27,903 bases of DNA, taken from positions 1 through 27,903 of the forward strand of contig BRYA01000251.1 of assembly GCA_030267965.1 (NCBI GenBank), in the 5' to 3' direction. A program made the position numbers and the translations under genes. Shown here one piece after another: positions 19,334 through 27,903 of this stretch. The notes beneath the pieces were generated by a model, which made no database searches, had not been told where the DNA came from, and saw only the letters and a list, made by a program, of their open reading frames with translations. Numbering within the stretch: the stretch's first letter is position 1; each line of letters starts with the position of its first letter. The stretch comes from Triparma columacea (taxonomy: Eukaryota; Sar; Bolidophyceae; Parmales; Triparmaceae).

Positions 19334-22300
19334 ATGTCTATTTCGATCAAGGTGGCGATTAGATGGTGAGGGTTTGGGTGCTTATGGCCCGTCGCTGTCC
19401 GAAGTTGGGGTACCCAACATCAAACTGGAATCCCAGTGACCTCTCATGCAGGAAATGGAGTGATGTCCCCACCCGCCTCATCGCGCGAAACTTGTTCCTG
19501 TGCCGTTCTGACCCCTACCCCCCCCCCCCCCCCCTCCCTCCCACTCCGACTCCAGCCGTCCTTTTACGATGGAGGACAAGCTCGGTGTGGAGATGACACA
19601 GAATGGCGAAGAGGAGGGGGAGGTTGAGCTCTTGAATTCAAACTACTCCACCACGCGCTTCCCGTTCTCATACTCTTGGTGGACCGGGTTTAACTACAAA
19701 AATTATGCTCAGTCGAATCTCGACGTTTGCGAGAGGATGAAATTTGTAGGACAGGATGATGTCTATGACTCTGTGGGTCAGAAGATCAAAGCCGACTTAA
19801 TGGACGGAAATGCGGTGGTGCTTTTCGCATACGGTTTGGGCGGAAGCGGGAAGACCTACACCGTCTACGGCCCTGACGCCGCTGACAGTCCTGATGCCTG
19901 GTTCAAGCACTCTGAGCCTCACCACCAATGGGGCCTCTTCCCTCGCCTCGCCTACGATCTCTTCAAGGAGAAGCAGGACGGCTGGAAGTTCAGCATGAAG
20001 TACTTCCAGAACGTCGTCGATATCGTGAGGGATTTGATGTCCCCCATGGCTGAAGAGAAGTCCTACAAGACAGGTATGAGGAAGGACAATGACGGCTTCA
20101 TGAACATTGAATGGTGCCAATCAAGGACTCTGGAGACCTGGGACGACCTGAGAGAGCAGTTCATGAAAAGCAACGCCAAGAAAGTAAGCAGCCCTACGCA
20201 GTTCAACCACCAGAGTACCCGCGGGCACTGCATCTTGACCCTCGAGGTCGAGATGCCCATAAACAGCAAAACTGGCATGAAAGAAAAGAAACGGGTGTAC
20301 GTGTGCGATCTCGCAGGAACGGAGCCCGCCGGAGACCTCTACTACGCAGACTTCCAGAAGACCAAGTACATGGAAGACGGCGAGGAAGTCATTGAGCACA
20401 GGCTCAAGGGTCCCCACAAGGACCAGAGAAAGACGAAGGAACTTCAGGACCAACAAAAGAAAATCAACCTGAGTCTTAGCGAGATGGCTCAGTTCTTCAT
20501 GAAGATGGCAGATGCTGCGAAGAAGAAGAAGCTCAAGCCGGGACAAAGTATCCCGGGATGCAACTCTTACTTCTTGTGCAAGTACCTCAAGGACACCATG
20601 CTTCAGGCGAAGACGTACCTTTTCTGCGCCATTAGGCCGGAGGTGAAGTACCATCCCTACACTTTCGCGACTCTGGGGTTTGCCACGAACGCCAGTGCGA
20701 TCAAGCTCGCCCCCAAGAAGGCCACCGCCAATATAACCGACAACGAGCGCAAGCTCATGGCTGAAATGAAGGACCTCAAGGCCCTTGTCGCCGATCTTCA
20801 GTCGGGTGGAGGGGGGGGGGACGATATGGCCGCCCTTCTCGCCGCGAAGCAGAAGGAGCTTGAGGCAGCCATGGACGGCGAGAATGGGAACATGGCCGAC
20901 GAGGCCCTTAACGAGGCCCTTCTAGCTGTCGAGGCGGCCACGGCCGCCCTCGACAACATCACGAAGAACGATCTCAATGAAGTGAGACATATGGTTAAGC
21001 CTCCCAACCTCCTTAAGCTCACTTGTATGATGTGCACGTGCATGAAGCCTACTGGCGAGACGCTGACCGAGGACTGGCTCGGCAGTAAGAAGATGCTCGG
21101 AGACGCCAAGCTTCTTGAAAAGTTGAAGAACTATCCCAGAGACAAGATCACCGAGGAGATGGCCAAGGGCGCGGAAAAGTACTTAAAAAACAAGGAGCTT
21201 ACCGCCGAGAACTTAGGAAAGGTCAGTAAGGCAGGCCATGGTCTCTATGTTTGGGTTGATGCCATCTTGAAGTACCATAACAGAAAGAAGGAAGGAGCGA
21301 CGACAAGCGACTTAAAGATTGCGAACCAACAGGCTGAGAAACTCAAAACCGATGACATTCTTCAACACCAAATGGCCGCTCTGTCATCTGGTCAGCTCCC
21401 TTTCAATCGTTCTCGCGTCATGGTTGTCGGGCAAGGTAGGGTGGGTAAAACCACGCTCCTCCGTCGCCTCCTCGGCGAGCCATTCAACCCAAACGAGCAG
21501 TCAACCGTCGGCGCCGTAACCCAGGATATTGACGCAAAGGTGAGCAATAGATATACAACAATCCTCTTCGTTCTGCAAAGCGACTAATCCTTCGTTACTG
21601 CCATCTTCGCGATTCGTTTCACTCATCGCAGGCTGTCCGAGAGCAGGAGGGCGTGGACATTTCCCAAGCTGAGACAAGCAATGGCTGGAATTCTATTCTT
21701 GGCGAGGATGATAATGACGAGCACGTCCGGGCTATGAGGAAGGAAGTGGCGAGGCGTGCAAAAGAGAAAAAAATGAAGGAGGAGGAGGAGGAGGAGGAGG
21801 AGGAGGAGGAGGAGAAGGAGGAGGAAGAAGAAGAAGAAGAAGAAGAAAGAGGCAGGGATGCTGCAAAGGAGGGCTTGAATGAGAATGAGGAGAAAGCCAA
21901 GGGGTGGAAGATCGGGAGTGAGCTGACAAAGACAATGTCAGTTACAACATCTGCTGAGGAAGCAATAAGAGTCTGGGCAGAGAAGCACATTGAGGTACAA
22001 GAAATCATGAGAGAGCATGGCTGGCTAAGACCAATGCTCGAGGCTGTTGTTAAGGAGGCAGCCAATGCTTTTGCTCCAGCCCCAACAAGCCCCATCTCCG
22101 ACCCCTCCTCGAAACTTCCCTCCCCCTCTACCAAGCCTGCACCTGCTCCCGCTCCTTCTACCCCTGCTACCTTCCCCGCCCCTTCTGCCCCTGCTCCCTC
22201 CCCCGCACCCAACAACAAACCAACCCGTGAAGAGCAACTGGAGGAGAAGATGAAGGATCTTGGGGACGTGGAACTTGGAGAGGACAATAAGCTACGCCTA

Positions 22301-23417
22301 AGCATCTGGGACTACGGCGGCCAGCGCATCTTCCAGTCCTTCCAGCACCTACTCGTCGTTCGTCGGGCCGTCTACCTGGTCGTCTTCAATATGAAAAGTT
22401 TCCTTGACGCACCACAAAAATCCTTCTCGTTCCTCGACTTTTGGCTGCACACGATTATAATCCACGCTGAAGGCGCCCCTGTCTTCCTCATTGGCACCCG
22501 AGGCGATATGGTAAAGAGCGACGACGACAGGGCAAAGATCTCTCAGATGCTGAAGACCCGATATTCCAAGCTACTTTCCTCGTCTATCACCACCAACACC
22601 GACCAAGATCTTTATTTCTTTCCAGTCGACAATACGTCCTCTGATCCCGCCGACGTCAAGACCTTCCAGAAACTCGCCTCTCTCACCGAGGCCAAGATCT
22701 CCTCTGACAAGCTCCCTCCTCTCCTTTCCTCGAGCTCCTCCACTCCTCTCCCATATATCGACGACAAAGTACCAATTTCGTGGCTGAACTTCTTTGACGA
22801 GCTCCGAAAGCTGGGCGCCGAGAAGGACGATGACGAGGAAGAAAGTGAAACGGAGGAATCTAATCCATACCTTGAAACTGGCCTCGTTCCGACCTCTCAA
22901 AATCCTACAGTCACGGCATTCACCCTCGCGCTCGAGCACAAGGTGTTTGAAGGCCTCTCCACCGAAGAGGAGAAAAAGACCCGCCTCGAAATTGTGCTCA
23001 ATGCTCTCCACGAACTCGGTCTAGTCATTTTCTTCAACAGTAGTACGTCTCTCAAAGCGTACGTAATACTTCAGCCACAGTGGCTCATGGATCAGGTGTG
23101 CTTTGTGATTAGGGATTTCAAGCGCCACCGTCTTCGCAGAGATAAGCGAATCCAGAAAAAGATGCTTGACGAGTGGCTGAACCTTACCGACTCCGGAATT
23201 GCAACAAGTCGTATCTTGGGGGAGCTCTGGGTCGGTCTTGAGGGTGGCCAAGTCAAGTTCTTAATTTCCCTCATGACCAAGCTCGGGCTATTGGTCCCCT
23301 TTAATGAGACTACGGCTAGCTCTTCTCGCTACTTTGCACCAAATCTCGTGACGACGGAGGACGACGACGACGACGACCACAACGATGGCGATGATGGCGA
23401 CGACGACGACAACGACA

Positions 23418-23448
<31 letters not shown>

Positions 23449-26080
23449 CAACGACAATAATAATGATGAAGGTGGCGTACCTTCTGGCACCGAGACCTTC
23501 AACATCGAGTCTTACATGGACGACGCACGTTATCTCCCCAACGGTTTCCTAGAGCGCCTCATCGCCGAGTGTGTGCCGTATGCCACAAACTACACAAGCG
23601 AGAATCCAAGCATATCAATTGATTTCCCCCTCCCTTCTGAGGTCCACGCAAAGGGCAAGATTATGGTGAAGATTGAGGTTCAGGATGGCGACAAGGTTGC
23701 TCTAATTTCCCTTTCGTCCAATGGAAAAGAGATTGTGTGCTCTATTACTCCTCTTGGGGATGGGGATGGGAATGAGTGGAAGCATCATGCCCAACATTTG
23801 ATGGAAAGCGCCGGTGATGTCAACGACGAATTCTTCGAAGGGCGCCTGTCGATGTCGTCTTCGAGGCGCGACGAAGTTGGCGAGATCGGTAATAAGACGA
23901 CGAAGCGGAGTCTCAATGTTATGACACCACAGCAAGAATCTGTCAGGATTGAGAAGGACGAAGAAGGAGTAGAAGCGGAAAAGGACGAAGACGAAGAGAT
24001 GTTCATATTTCTCAAAGAGTGCGGGATCAAGGACAAAAAAGCTTTACTGATTGCAGAAAAGCTTGAAGATGACGGCTATGACGAGGTACAGACTCTCATG
24101 ATTCTTCTCGAGGACAGCGTTGAAGATTTCAAGGAAGCGTTGGAAGAAGCAGGTGAGATGATGGTTAAGAAAGCTTGATTGATTGGAAAGCCTGACAAAC
24201 TGCCATACTGACCCAATTTCGATTCGCTTTTCCATCATTGTAGGAGCCAAGGGAGGATTCTTAATCAAGATAAAGAAGGGTCTAAAGGAGCTTGAAAAGG
24301 TCAAGATAGCAATAAGAAGCAGAAAACCTTACGTCCTCGTGGTTACTGGGGGCAGTGATCTAAACACTGGCGAGGAGACCAACTTGATCGAGAAGGCCTT
24401 CTCTGGCGACAAGAAGAACAGGAAAGCCTTGTTATTGGAGGAGAACAACATCGAAAGTATGACAAAGACAATTTCAGGTGAGGGGGTGAGGGGGTGAGGG
24501 GGTGAGGGGGTGAGGGGACAAATGGCTAACGCAATCACTTCTGTGCTTTCTCCGCTCGCCGCACAGAAAATCGGACCCTTGAGTGCGTCCACTTTGCACT
24601 CCATGGGGCCGTCGGCAAGGCTGACGGAAAGCAAACGGTCGCCATGAAGACGAAAAAGAACGATCCTGACATGAGTACGCCAAGAGAGGTCGGAAATGTG
24701 ATAAAGGCCAGTGGTGGGCATGTCAAAGCTATCATCTTAAATCTTTGCCGAGGCGGGGTGAAGGAGAGTGCAGTGGATTTCATCGGAGGAACCGACTATT
24801 TAATTGGGTGGGAGACAGATGTTGACGACTCTGCGGCTGTCCACTTTAGCGAAGAGTTCTACGCAAGCATCAGAGATGGCGATGAGCTCGAGGTCGCTTT
24901 CTTCCATGCGATCGAAATCTTGAAGAATATACACCGGTGGCAATTTGATCTCGACCCATCTAGCAAAGAGCATAGAAGGGAATTGAAGAATCGGCGCAAC
25001 ACCCAGAAGCGAACAACTCTGAAGATTGCAGGTGTACCGGTTCTTTATAAAAGGAAGGGAGAGGGGGGATTAGAAAAGGTCGAAGAACTCCCAGACGTCA
25101 AGAGGAAAGTAACGTTGAAGAGAGATAGCACATATGCATTTCAAGTTATGATGCTATCGGGGATGCAGGACATCAAGGACAGCCAGAGGAAAATAATAGA
25201 GAAGCTAGACGAATCGATCGACAGCGTGATTACAGCAATGTTTGAAATCGCAGAGTTTGACGTACCGCGCACGTTCGTCATTCTACCATACGAACTTGAA
25301 GAGAGCGAAGAGAGCATAGAGGACGACGGGGAGGGGACGCGGGAGTCAGCTCTTGAGGTTGCGGGGGGGAAACTGGAGAAAGCAACAGGATGGATGTCTA
25401 AACTGACCAGCGTTATGAACGCTGTTTCAGGAGGAAAGGTGACAGAAAAAGTACGCTCTGCGGTGGAGAGTAAGCTCGAGGATACCTTCGCCGATCTGAA
25501 GAGCGATCATTTATACTTGTATTTGATTGACGAGGTAACAGGCAAGCCAGTCACGGGGGATGGTTACCCCTTCCAAATCAAGATTGCAAGCGAAGAGGTA
25601 AGGAAGCTCCTCCCTCTTATGACTTTAGGCCTCAAGGCAATCAGCGCCGCCAATGTTGCCTCAGGGTTAGCCCGCTGTTTCGGAGTGCCTGCGCCCGACC
25701 TGACGCTAGTCGAGGAGACTGCGTCCTCATTCGTTGAATCCATGTCAACCAACAGCAGCGTGGAGAAGTACGATTGTTTACAAAGCGTCGTGGACGAAGG
25801 TTTCGCAAGAGACATTGAGGAATGTGGGGGGAATGAGATGAAGACAAAGCAACTTAGGGGCGCTGCGTTGAAGGATTTTAAGAAATTTCTGAAGGATAAC
25901 GATCCGGAGGGAATGTCGACAGGAGTGTTCTGCGGGCTATCAAGGAGTCAGCGGGACGGACATGTTGTGTGGACACGATTGGACGAGAGGGATATAGTGA
26001 CACGCCCCCTCTCTTCAAGTCAGGTTCACCGGGTGTCAGAGATTAGGGCGATGGAGTCGACGACGGCGACGACAGATTAG
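19334..26080 (+). CDS. kinesin motor / dynein MTBD / Roc-COR / SAM / CHAT protease fusion, 2094 aa
   Basis: Five exons: 19334-19365, 19556-21539, 21632-24152, 24244-24477, 24567-26080 (TAG). All have GTGAG donors and AG acceptors with matching phases. The 32-nt first exon gives MSISIKVAIR; splicing completes the kinesin strand VAIRCRPF, which proves the join. Domains: kinesin motor ~4-400 with P-loop GLGGSGKT 104-111, switch I NHQSTRGH 228-235, switch II DLAGTE ~262-267; coiled coil ~400-482; dynein microtubule-binding domain ~483-590 (NEVRHMVKPPN...KKMLGD...VSKA...VWVDAI); Roc P-loop GQGRVGKT 636-643, then a Glu-rich and Pro/Ala-rich insert, G3 WDYGGQ 897-902, TRGD 960-963; COR ~1045-1415 interrupted by an Asp/Asn run 1246-1283; SAM ~1464-1535; CHAT ~1540-1715 with His 1603 (HFALHG) and Cys 1651 (LNLCRGG); unknown module ~1716-2094. 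Inferred role: GTP-controlled protease on microtubules. Confidence 0.88.
24478..24517 (+). repeat. tandem GTGAGGGG repeat at a splice donor
   Basis: The fourth intron of the fusion gene (24478-24566, 89 bp) opens with five consecutive GTGAGGGG units. Each unit is itself a good 5' splice site. Using a downstream unit would add 8 nt per step, with frame shifts. The first unit keeps the CHAT domain in frame. Confidence 0.9.
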
Positions 26081-26238
26081 GGGAGCATACAGATGAAGGC
26101 CCTAGGAGGGAAAACGCAGAAGAACATCGTATAAGGAGAGGGAGCAAGACAAGGAAGGGAGGGGAAAAGACAATAGAGGAGAATGTGGGAGAAAATAAAT
26201 CTTCACTCTTTTTTTTTCGTTCATCACTCTTCTCCTAG

Positions 26239-26300
26239 ACAACGACGGCAATCTTGTCGACGGCGCCTTCGCCAAGGCGATTGTCGACGACATCTTGTAA
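26239..26300 (+). other. candidate orphan terminal exon
   Basis: A long T/C tract (~26206-26236) ends in CTCCTAG, and is followed by 62 nt that read, in phase 1, NDGNLVDGAFAKAIVDDIL and then TAA. The composition (C/G at third positions) resembles coding sequence, unlike its surroundings. It could be an alternative last exon of the fusion gene. The only phase-matching donor I find is a weak GTCAGG at 26019. It may equally be a relic. Confidence 0.3.
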
Positions 26301-26704
26301 CGACGGCGTTTTTGGGGGGTGCCGGGTGCTCTATTAGGGATCAACAAGGAAACAGAAAGAAGAAAAATGTTCGAAAAGGAGGAGGGGGTGGAGATGTTAA
26401 AGAACGCACTGAGGGGGGGAGAGCTTGGCGTGGAGAGCATGGAGAGGGATGTCTCCAGGAGGGAGAAGGATGTTGAGGGAGCGCAATAGAGACTCAGGGG
26501 GAGTGAGGATGTAGTAGAGGGCAAGGAGAGGAGCATCATTGTCATGATTGAGGTAGTGAGAGGGACATTGGGGTCAAGGAGTTGGGGATAGCTGAGAGGG
26601 AGAGGGATAGGTTTGTCGAGAAGAAATTGAAGGCTATTGAGGACAGTGAGGTTCACATTGAGAGAGAATCGTCATCCTTGCTCTCCGGGGAGAAGGGGGT
26701 CAGG

Positions 26705-26732
26705 GAACACGAGAGAAGGAACACGAGAGAAG
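26705..26732 (+). repeat. perfect 14-bp tandem duplication (frame-breaking)
   Basis: GAACACGAGAGAAG occurs twice head-to-tail (26705-26718, 26719-26732), directly before a TAG. 14 is not a multiple of three, so it shifts the heptad-coding frame. Confidence 0.95.
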
Positions 26733-27787
26733 TAGGGCCTTAGAATTTGAGAAGGAACTTGGGGAGACAAAAAGGACAGTCGTTGAGGAGGAGGGGAGGA
26801 TTGAAAGCAGGCTTGCAGAGTGCAAACTAGGGGAGGATATAATGAGGGATGTTGAGAAGAGGAAAGAGGAGGTGGAGGGAAGGGAGAGAGAAGTTGCAGA
26901 GGAAGAGTCCAGGGCAAAGGAGGAAGTATCAAGGATGAGAGCTGAGGCAGAGAGGGTGAGGGAGATAGACAAGGAGGAGATCAAGAAGCTCAGGGAGGAA
27001 GAGGACATGATAATTGGGGAGAAGTTTGAGTGGGAGGGGAAGAGGGGGGAGGTTGGAAGGGTCATTGTGGTGGAAAGGGAGGAGGTTGAGGGGCTGAGGG
27101 AGGAGAGAGAAGCTCGGGAAGATGAAGAAGTGCAAGTAAGAGGAAATGTTTTTGATGGCACTCTTGGAGGAAAAGGAGAGCATGGAGAGGGAGGATGTGG
27201 AGGGCAGGTGAAAGAAGGAGGAGGCCAAGAGGCTGTTGGAGGCAGGCATGAGGAGGATGGAGGGTGGTAGAGATTGGGGAGAGGCTGTAGGAGTTAAAGG
27301 AGAAGAAGGAAGAGTGTGAGAAACTTAGGGAAATGCTGGACTGGATGAAGGCTGAGATGGGAGGGTAGGTGAGAGAGGAAGGGTGAAGAGAGGAGGGGGG
27401 GGAACAGGGAGGACTGGGAGGATAGGGTTAGGAGGGAGATGATGTAGATTGCGGAGGAGGGGGAGAAGGTCAGGGTGGTGAGAGAGAAGGGCGAGAGATT
27501 TCAGAGGGAGGCATAGGAGGAGAAGGAGAGGTGGGAAAGGGAGAGTGAGAGTGAGGAAAGGGAAAGAATGAGAGAGCTCAGGATAGAGAAGGACAAGGAG
27601 AGGAGAGAGGTGGGGAGTTGGAAAGGAGGATCAAGGAAGTAGAATGGAAGGCAGTGAGGAAGAGGAGGAGGCAAGAGGGCAAGAGGGAGAGAAGGAAAGA
27701 GGAGAATGCATTGGAGGGAGAGAGAGAGAGAGAGAGTGCAAGGACAAGGAAGGGATGGTAAGCAAGAGGGAGAGAGTATGCAAGGAG

Positions 27788-27815
27788 ATTGATAGGAGGT
27801 TATTGATAGGAGGTT
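27788..27815 (+). repeat. perfect 14-bp tandem duplication (second)
   Basis: ATTGATAGGAGGTT occurs twice head-to-tail (27788-27801, 27802-27815) in the decayed coiled-coil region. It has the same length as the duplication at 26705 but an unrelated sequence. Confidence 0.95.
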
Positions 27816-27903
27816 TACAGCAAAGAAGGAAGAGGTTGTTGAATAGTTAGTTGAAGGTGGAGGGAAGAGAGAGAGAGGGGGGATGTGGTGAAGGAAGGCA
27901 GTT

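What the first reader, a model, noticed from the sequence alone, without database searches (positions are those of the whole stretch)
19334..26080. Single-chain kinesin / dynein-MTBD / ROCO GTPase / SAM / CHAT protease
Five exons with fully consistent splice phases link hallmark motifs of five families: kinesin (VAIRCRPF, GLGGSGKT, DLAGTE), dynein microtubule-binding domain, Roc-COR (GQGRVGKT, WDYGGQ, TRGD), SAM and CHAT (HFALHG, LNLCRGG). ROCO proteins are known GTP switches and CHAT domains are caspase/separase-like proteases. I know of no described protein joining these to a kinesin motor and a dynein stalk tip. A plausible reading is a microtubule-docked sensor in which nucleotide state gates proteolysis, for example in cell death, mitotic or flagellar control. 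This is the best candidate for an undescribed system.
Basis: partly seen in the sequence, partly recalled or inferred. Interest (0 to 1): 0.95.

Follow-up and report, generated by a model that had tools for sequence, protein, structure and literature searches.

The report
Kinesin, dynein tip, GTPase, protease fusion
What appears to be a small marine alga carries one gene, stitched together from parts of several other genes, that joins a kinesin motor and the microtubule-gripping tip of dynein to a GTP switch and a caspase-like protease; relatives suggest that such proteins have picked up microtubule parts more than once, perhaps to watch over the cell's skeleton.

Summary
19334-26080 reads as one five-exon gene (2,094 aa). 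Kinesin, dynein stalk-tip, Roc and COR-A pass Pfam cut-offs; CHAT falls just below its cut-off but keeps its His/Cys pair and matches a solved CHAT protein by profile. SAM found no support. A Triparma verrucosa relative carries a dynein tip from a different dynein (tree test p=1.6e-5), and a metagenome protein independently joins the same kinesin family to Roc-COR and a TIR-like region. The exchangeable part has thus repeatedly included microtubule machinery. Best reading: a microtubule-linked, GTP-switched CHAT protease receptor built like NLRs with integrated domains; function unproven, and no transcript was seen. A young chimera without function remains a serious rival.

The parts
19334..19365 (+). 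Exon 1, start codon and first residues of the kinesin motor
   Evidence: C282 kinesin shares ATG, exon and splice phase
19366..19555 (+). Intron 1 (190 nt, GT-AG)
   Evidence: same phase in C282, sequence not alignable
19556..21539 (+). Exon 2: kinesin motor, dynein stalk tip and Roc P-loop in one open frame
19587..20711 (+). Kinesin motor domain; P-loop GLGGSGKT (res. 104-111), switch I NHQSTRGH (228-235), switch II DLAGTE (262-267)
   Evidence: Pfam 1.3e-33; AF2 model, first 38 blocks of 10 residues at mean pLDDT 68-97; Foldseek KIF1A E 1.5e-19; motif positions
19520..20890 (+). Donor segment 1: 86.7% DNA identity to the kinesin gene on contig C282
20895..21281 (+). Dynein microtubule-binding stalk tip (Pfam MT, profile 80-211 of 344)
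   Evidence: dynein heavy chains among solved chains
20879..21277 (+). Donor segment 2: 82% DNA identity to the dynein heavy chain on C325
   Evidence: tree
21278..21301 (+). Junction 2: 24 nt assigned to neither donor
   Evidence: 200-nt stretches of the two donors around it share at most 8 nt exactly
21302..26079 (+). Donor segment 3: Roc-COR-CHAT core, 92-95.5% DNA identity to C319 (there behind DUF285 repeats); homology ends at the stop codon
21429..21452 (+). Roc P-loop GQGRVGKT (res. 636-643)
21540..21631 (+). Intron 2 (92 nt)
21632..24152 (+).
21860..22057 (+). Donor segment 4: 198-nt in-frame insert, 93.9% identical to C714, absent from the C319 copy
22235..22507 (+). Roc second part with WDYGGQ (res. 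898-903) and TRGD (961-964)
22178..22735 (+). 186 codons (res. 855-1040) without any difference from C319: likely recent exchange tract
22973..23347 (+). COR-A domain
24153..24243 (+). Intron 3 (91 nt)
24244..24477 (+). Exon 4
24324..24961 (+). CHAT protease-like domain (res. 1540-1722), interrupted by intron 4; His1603 at 24602-24604, Cys1651 at 24746-24748
24478..24566 (+). Intron 4 (89 nt)
24567..26080 (+). Exon 5: catalytic part of CHAT and C-terminal domain, stop at 26078-26080
24950..26008 (+). C-terminal domain of unknown kind; besides C319, 17 further matches on 12 other contigs
26081..26364 (+). 3' flank (donor 5): about 81-82% identical to C513:66321-66614

Best explanation
A nuclear gene of a Triparma-like bolidophyte alga encodes a ROCO protein with an exchangeable N-terminal input module, a Roc-COR GTP switch, and a CHAT cysteine-protease output. 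In this copy the input module (DUF285 or LRR repeats in its relatives) is a kinesin motor head followed by the globular microtubule-binding tip of a dynein. SHOWN by sequence: the single open gene model, the domains (CHAT by remote similarity), the intact kinesin, Roc and CHAT motifs, the donors in the same genome, and captures of microtubule parts by relatives. INFERRED: the motor head and dynein tip tether the protein to microtubules, or serve as bait for whatever attacks motors; a change of the filament or of the bait relieves Roc-COR, which dimerises or opens and lets CHAT cut a target that starts a defence or death response. The data do not separate dock from bait.
For: One unspliced frame holds motor, tip and Roc P-loop. 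N-termini of this ROCO-CHAT family differ: DUF285 (C319), LRR_5 (T. laevis P0003), dynein tip behind what looks by eye like the end of an LRR (T. verrucosa P0001), kinesin plus dynein tip (window). The two dynein tips come from different dyneins: window with C325, P0001 with C55, UFBoot 100 each; joining them costs 75 log-likelihood units, AU p=1.6e-5. Both are cut to nearly the same piece, profile 80-211 and 79-213 of 344, which suggests selection for the globular tip. One predicted metagenome protein joins the same kinesin family to Roc-COR and a TIR-like region (P0036), and P0113 of its family carries an IFT52-like fragment (24.1 bits, Pfam cut-off 27.9; solved Chlamydomonas IFT52 E 0.0016). 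dN/dS 0.30 between the two ROCO-CHAT copies. Fungal NLR and TPR receptors carry CHAT, and a TPR-CHAT protease activates a gasdermin (PMC12881547, passages). A kinesin motor domain stands in the table of integrated plant-NLR domains that overlap effector targets (PMC4759884, passages; meaning of the table taken from its section title). LRRK2, a ROCO protein, binds microtubules through Roc and blocks kinesin (PMC9758056, passages).
Against: No transcript, protein or phenotype. No test of motor or protease activity. CHAT stays under its Pfam cut-off here (21.4 of 24 bits) and in P0001-P0003 (17.8, 23.5, 22.9), exon 5 alone shows no family, and the genome-wide CHAT search did not list this locus. 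The exon 5 model was poor (pLDDT 42) and the stalk part of the exon 2 model is under 60, mostly under 50, so binding surfaces were not examined. The order kinesin + dynein tip + ROCO + CHAT was seen in this one gene only. Kinesin dS (0.40) and stalk dS (0.70) against their donors are far above the core's 0.066, so much of the constraint seen in those parts may predate the fusion. The window motor departs from 6 of 133 outgroup-invariant sites, one of them in the P-loop (Ser106 to Gly), C282 from 4; at 230 sites conserved in 80% of outgroups it has 14 private changes against 6 in C282. Of 43 proteins of P0036's family only P0036 has kinesin, and its motor has lost the switch II Asp, which fits bait or relic better than a motor. 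The immune role is borrowed from other organisms.
Confidence: 0.5

Rival explanations
1. A young chimera without a selected function: frequent exchange in this genome produced an open frame that has not yet decayed.
For: Five donors and one exchange tract without differences; a second example of segment sharing at C150; low dS of the core (0.066); more private changes in the motor than in C282.
Against: A 6.3-kb coding sequence stays open; core dN/dS 0.30; of 61 amino-acid differences from C319, 15 resolve as changes in the window copy and 11 in C319, so the window copy is not clearly decaying faster; nucleotide and catalytic motifs kept; parallel captures in other lineages.
Confidence: 0.25
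2. A non-immune, microtubule-localised regulated protease, separase-like, for mitosis or for flagellum assembly and shedding.
For: CHAT is structurally close to separase (PMC12881547 passage); donors are a kinesin and a dynein heavy chain; parmaleans are thought to alternate flagellated and silicified stages (PMC10328945 passages); a ROCO relative carries an IFT52-like fragment.
Against: Core cell machinery is seldom rebuilt by recent domain swaps (general knowledge); within the family the N-terminus is swappable and the core occurs behind DUF285 or LRR; COR-A is found at only two loci in the genome.
Confidence: 0.17
3. Not one gene: separate genes or an assembly join.
For: No long-read or cDNA evidence here; the contig is short (27.9 kb) and the gene lies near its end; P0001's gene model, a support for the wider story, could not be checked on DNA.
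Against: Motor, tip and Roc share one frame; 200-nt stretches of the donors at the two junctions share at most 10 and 8 exact nt, so reads could not easily be mis-joined; the segments differ from their donors by 4.5-18%; introns 2-4 conserved with C319.
Confidence: 0.06

Closest known systems
ROCO proteins (LRRK2, DAPK1, MFHAS1, Dictyostelium Roco, bacterial LRR-RocCOR)
   Same: Roc followed by COR; variable partners; DAPK1 binds the cytoskeleton and acts in cell death (PMC6337361 passages); LRRK2 binds microtubules through Roc (PMC9758056 passages)
   Different: CHAT-like output instead of kinase or death domain, kinesin plus dynein tip instead of LRR; Roc is split by a long acidic low-complexity insert. 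The words kinesin and caspase occur 0 times in the main text of the ROCO review PMC6337361
CHAT receptors of fungi and bacteria (TPR-CHAT with gasdermin, Craspase)
   Same: CHAT as output behind a sensor (PMC12881547 passages; PMC9729208 seen in a listing only)
   Different: Here the switch is a Roc-COR GTPase; a gasdermin partner was not sought
Plant NLRs with integrated domains (integrated decoys)
   Same: Recurrent fusion of ordinary cell proteins, a kinesin motor domain among them, to a receptor core (PMC4759884 and PMC5067614 passages)
   Different: No NB-ARC over its cut-off; another switch, another kind of organism; immunity not shown
Orphan stramenopile kinesin (C282 and oomycete, brown-algal relatives)
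   Same: 64-68% identity to the seven best public relatives over 67-71% of residues 1-640; C282 shares exon 1 and phase
   Different: None of the other public matches carries Roc in the Pfam column; the C282 tail is replaced at about 20890

Membership tests
ROCO proteins | Roc GTPase followed by COR in one chain | tested here: met
   Roc and COR-A over Pfam cut-offs, in order; P-loop, WDYGGQ and TRGD present
ROCO proteins | GTP-dependent dimer switch | not testable with these tools
   needs biochemistry
Kinesin superfamily | Complete motor domain with P-loop, switch I and switch II | tested here: met
   Pfam 1.3e-33, confident motor model matching KIF1A, motifs present, one private change in the P-loop that keeps GxxxxGKT
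Kinesin superfamily | Microtubule-stimulated ATPase or movement | not testable with these tools
   no assay
Dynein heavy chain | Microtubule-binding tip | tested here: met
   Pfam MT 2.7e-10, 77% aa identity to the C325 tip over 132 columns
Dynein heavy chain | Full coiled-coil stalk and AAA ring | tested here: not met
   Only profile positions 80-211 of 344; no AAA family over its cut-off in exons 2, 3 or 5
CHAT proteases | CHAT fold with catalytic His and Cys | tested here: inconclusive
   21.4 bits vs cut-off 24, 3 of 3 members match at E up to 10, best 5.4e-6; PDB 8tl0 E 2.1e-6; H1603 and C1651 kept; against: alone missed it; structure model too poor
SAM domain | Profile match to SAM_1 or SAM_2 | tested here: not met
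   No SAM family for any of 5 sequences at E up to 10; no SAM chain among 18 PDB matches
NLR-like receptors with integrated domains | Recurrent exchange of the input domain on a conserved switch-effector core | tested here: met
   DUF285, LRR_5, dynein tip, kinesin plus tip on one core; two independent dynein tips
NLR-like receptors with integrated domains | NB-ARC/NACHT-type STAND ATPase | tested here: not met
   The NB-ARC hit is 12.7 bits, cut-off 23.5
NLR-like receptors with integrated domains | Triggers defence or cell death on challenge | not tested

The most novel reading that the evidence does not exclude
Stramenopile algae, and perhaps other protists, hold a class of intracellular receptors in which a ROCO GTPase, not an NLR ATPase, is the switch, with CHAT or TIR-like outputs, and in which parts of the microtubule and flagellar machinery (kinesin head, dynein tip, IFT52) are captured again and again as sensors: a guard of the microtubule cytoskeleton that answers tampering with a caspase-like protease.
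Probability: 0.3. Interest if true: 0.88.

Novelty: new variant of a known kind. Interest (0 to 1): 0.73.

Why it matters
If functional, this is a ROCO protein whose input is a pair of microtubule-binding modules and whose output is a caspase-like protease. It would give a natural test case for the link between ROCO proteins, microtubules and motors known from LRRK2, and would extend the integrated-domain logic of plant NLRs to a GTPase-switched family in unicellular algae. The donors are identifiable in the same genome, so it also shows, almost step by step, how a new multidomain protein is assembled.

Tried and rejected
SAM: searched with the window, four relatives and a profile against the PDB; no SAM match, so I dropped the name.

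Structure of exon 5: modelled from a 4-row alignment; pLDDT 42, not used for any fold search. The exon 2 model was used for the motor only; one fold search was made.

The first two stalk trees were wrong: minus-strand loci were not turned in the first, and gapped alignment rows of P0001 had been read in for both. Only one search is used; of the 24 MT loci it leaves out L070 (the window itself) and L073. The kinesin part was repeated with clean input and gave the same counts.

Viral origin of the P0036-type fusion: no match among phage records or, by peptide patterns, viral contigs.

FHA in the C282 kinesin tail: looked so by eye, but Pfam gave none, so not claimed. A WDR35-like propeller in P0118 was far below its cut-off (40.1 of 80 bits) and found no IFT chain in the PDB; not used. 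TIR in P0036 is 20.9 bits against a cut-off of 28; relatives P0098 and P0120 pass, hence 'TIR-like'.

The three large protein searches score only the candidates sharing most words (7,981, 7,979 and 7,995) and only proteins of 0.55-1.75 times the query length, so shorter relatives, such as Triparma kinesins of about 1,000 aa, were out of reach.

Literature: no paper of the library holds 'CHAT domain' with 'Roco' and 'GTPase', and the listings for kinesin, dynein and Roc fusion terms and for Roco with TIR showed no such protein by title or start of abstract; the library lacks most subscription papers. PMC10328945 was seen in passages: 'kinesin' occurs 0 times in its main text. PMC7159879 was seen in passages and held nothing on ROCO-CHAT. 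That HaRxL effectors are from an oomycete is recalled.


Full report
1. The gene is real as a reading frame. Exon 2 alone holds the kinesin motor, the dynein tip and the Roc P-loop in one frame of 661 codons; 1,000 order-1 simulations of the same stretch reached at most 287. A paralogue on contig C319 supports introns 2-4: same positions, different lengths (92/91/89 against 106/74/102, no change a multiple of 3), while the two coding sequences stay in frame to the stop; over 1,424 codons dS is 0.066, dN 0.020, ratio 0.30. The kinesin gene on C282 shares exon 1 and the phase of intron 1. No transcript was available.

2. Domains. Pfam gives Kinesin (1.3e-33), MT, the dynein microtubule-binding stalk (2.7e-10), Roc in two parts (1.5e-7, 8.5e-9) and COR-A (2.3e-11), all over cut-off. 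The motor is modelled confidently and is closest to KIF1A structures; P-loop, switch I and switch II are present, with one private change in the P-loop. CHAT is less secure: exon 5 alone shows no family, the genome-wide CHAT search lists five other loci but not this one, and the spliced piece scores 21.4 bits against a cut-off of 24, its relatives 17.8-23.5. In favour, 3 of 3 sequences match CHAT and no other family that well, a profile of the three finds a solved CHAT protein at E 2.1e-6 across both catalytic motifs, and His1603 and Cys1651 are kept. SAM found no support. The C-terminal 350 residues are a domain of unknown kind with 17 further matches on 12 contigs besides C319, several of them behind sequence that looks like a protein kinase by eye.

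3. A mosaic with identifiable donors. Against its own genome (37.85 Mb, 789 contigs) the gene falls into pieces: 19520-20890 is 86.7% identical in DNA to a kinesin gene on C282; 20879-21277 is 82% identical to a dynein heavy chain on C325 with a 4,303-aa frame; 21302-26079 is 92-95.5% identical to C319, where the same Roc-COR-CHAT core follows DUF285 repeats (E 6e-111). Inside the Roc insert, 21860-22057 is 93.9% identical to C714. A search with this insert had 622 candidates, of which 150 were scored and all 150 matched: the window itself, 21 at 81-96% over nearly the full length, one partial at 97%, and 127 at about 44-54%, many in long frames a few kilobases from contig ends. Right after the stop codon the 3' flank turns to C513-like sequence. 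In 200-nt stretches around the two main junctions the donors share no more than 10 and 8 exact nucleotides, which argues against a mis-assembly through repeats. Third-position GC also changes, 0.73 and 0.70 in motor and tip, 0.58-0.60 in the core.

4. Timing. Synonymous divergence from the donors is 0.40 (kinesin), 0.70 (tip) and 0.066 (core). The core contains 186 codons (22178-22735) with no difference at all, where about 16 differences would be expected from the mean rate (my arithmetic). So the pieces did not simply separate from the present donors at one time: either the kinesin and tip come from older duplicates now lost, or exchange with C319 keeps renewing the core. I cannot tell these apart.

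5. Relatives. A search with residues 640-2094 found 3 proteins at E 0.001 or better among 7,981 scored candidates, all from Triparma. P0001 (T. verrucosa, 1,618 aa) also carries a dynein tip before Roc; P0003 (T. laevis) has LRR_5; for P0002 Pfam names neither. In a tree of 25 sequences (the two fusions, one public dynein, 22 MT loci of this genome, two of which are not dynein heavy chains; 132 columns) the window tip is sister to C325 (77% identity) and the P0001 tip to C55 (59%), each with UFBoot 100; forcing the two fusion tips together is rejected (75 log units, AU p=1.6e-5). Both captures kept nearly the same stretch of the domain. P0001's DNA could not be seen, so whether its gene model is right and complete is unknown.

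6. A second kinesin-ROCO fusion. A search with residues 1-640 found 82 proteins among 7,979 scored; one, P0036 from a JGI metagenome, joins the same kinesin family to Roc and COR in one predicted protein of 1,487 aa, with a TIR-like region (20.9 bits, cut-off 28) that passes the cut-off in relatives P0098 and P0120. Its DNA and its organism were not seen. A search with its Roc-COR-TIR part found 43 proteins including itself; none of the other 42 matched the kinesin. Of six of these scanned with Pfam, N-termini include TPR (P0120), Skp1 (P0097) and FHA plus an IFT52-like fragment (P0113, 24.1 bits, cut-off 27.9), the last also matching solved Chlamydomonas IFT52 (E 0.0016). The core of P0036 is about 25% identical to the window's, so I take this fusion as independent. 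Its motor has lost the switch II Asp (NLAG) and changed switch I, so it is unlikely to hydrolyse ATP normally (inference).

7. Function. The constant part is a GTP switch with a protease-like or TIR-like output; the variable part has repeatedly included microtubule or flagellar machinery, next to ordinary repeats such as DUF285, LRR and TPR. This is how plant NLRs with integrated domains are built, and a kinesin motor domain stands in the table of integrated domains that overlap effector targets (PMC4759884, passages). CHAT proteases act behind sensors in fungal death pathways (PMC12881547, passages). LRRK2 shows that a ROCO protein can sit on microtubules and stop kinesin (PMC9758056, passages). 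I therefore favour a microtubule-linked surveillance protease, at about 0.5, with dock and bait unresolved. A young chimera without function (0.25) and a housekeeping protease of mitosis or flagella (0.17) remain open.

8. Source. Triparma-like identity is inferred from the three nearest relatives and from a genome size inside the parmalean range of 31.0-43.6 Mb; its size and contig number match none of the eight assemblies in Table 1 of PMC10328945 (passages). The contig carries ordinary nuclear genes such as ribosomal L5.

Noticed in passing
window 21848-22069; C122, C145, C714 and other places in G000: A roughly 68-aa stretch belongs to a very large gene family (150 scored matches, a lower bound) with frames up to about 3,400 aa, many lying 2-5 kb from contig ends; the C714 copy reads by eye like a membrane protein. 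Possibly a subtelomeric family.
   Followed up: partly
G000:C150:37977-38156 (L027): The short helical segment of exon 3 recurs at 80% identity in front of repeats that look armadillo-like by eye, another sign of segment exchange in this genome.
   Followed up: no
G000 C441:55516 (L071), C136:29681 (L072), C661:27236 (L073): Dynein tip-like domains (MT family) in frames of 752, 664 and 179 aa, too short for dynein heavy chains.
   Followed up: partly
window 26237-26364 and 26373-26420: Short repeats downstream of the gene: the first recurs, in whole or part, at six loci besides C513; the second (48 nt) at seven loci with 92-98% identity.
   Followed up: no
window 26400-27903: Charged, glutamate- and arginine-rich coiled-coil-like sequence broken by stops, perhaps a decayed gene (by eye).
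   Followed up: no
P0005, P0016, P0017: Public kinesin relatives whose Pfam column also names an aminotransferase (P0005, P0016) or actin (P0017); possibly gene-model errors.
   Followed up: no
window 25044-25293: 21 differences from C319 in 250 nt, against 0-15 in the other full blocks, clustered as if exchanged with a third, more distant copy.
   Followed up: no
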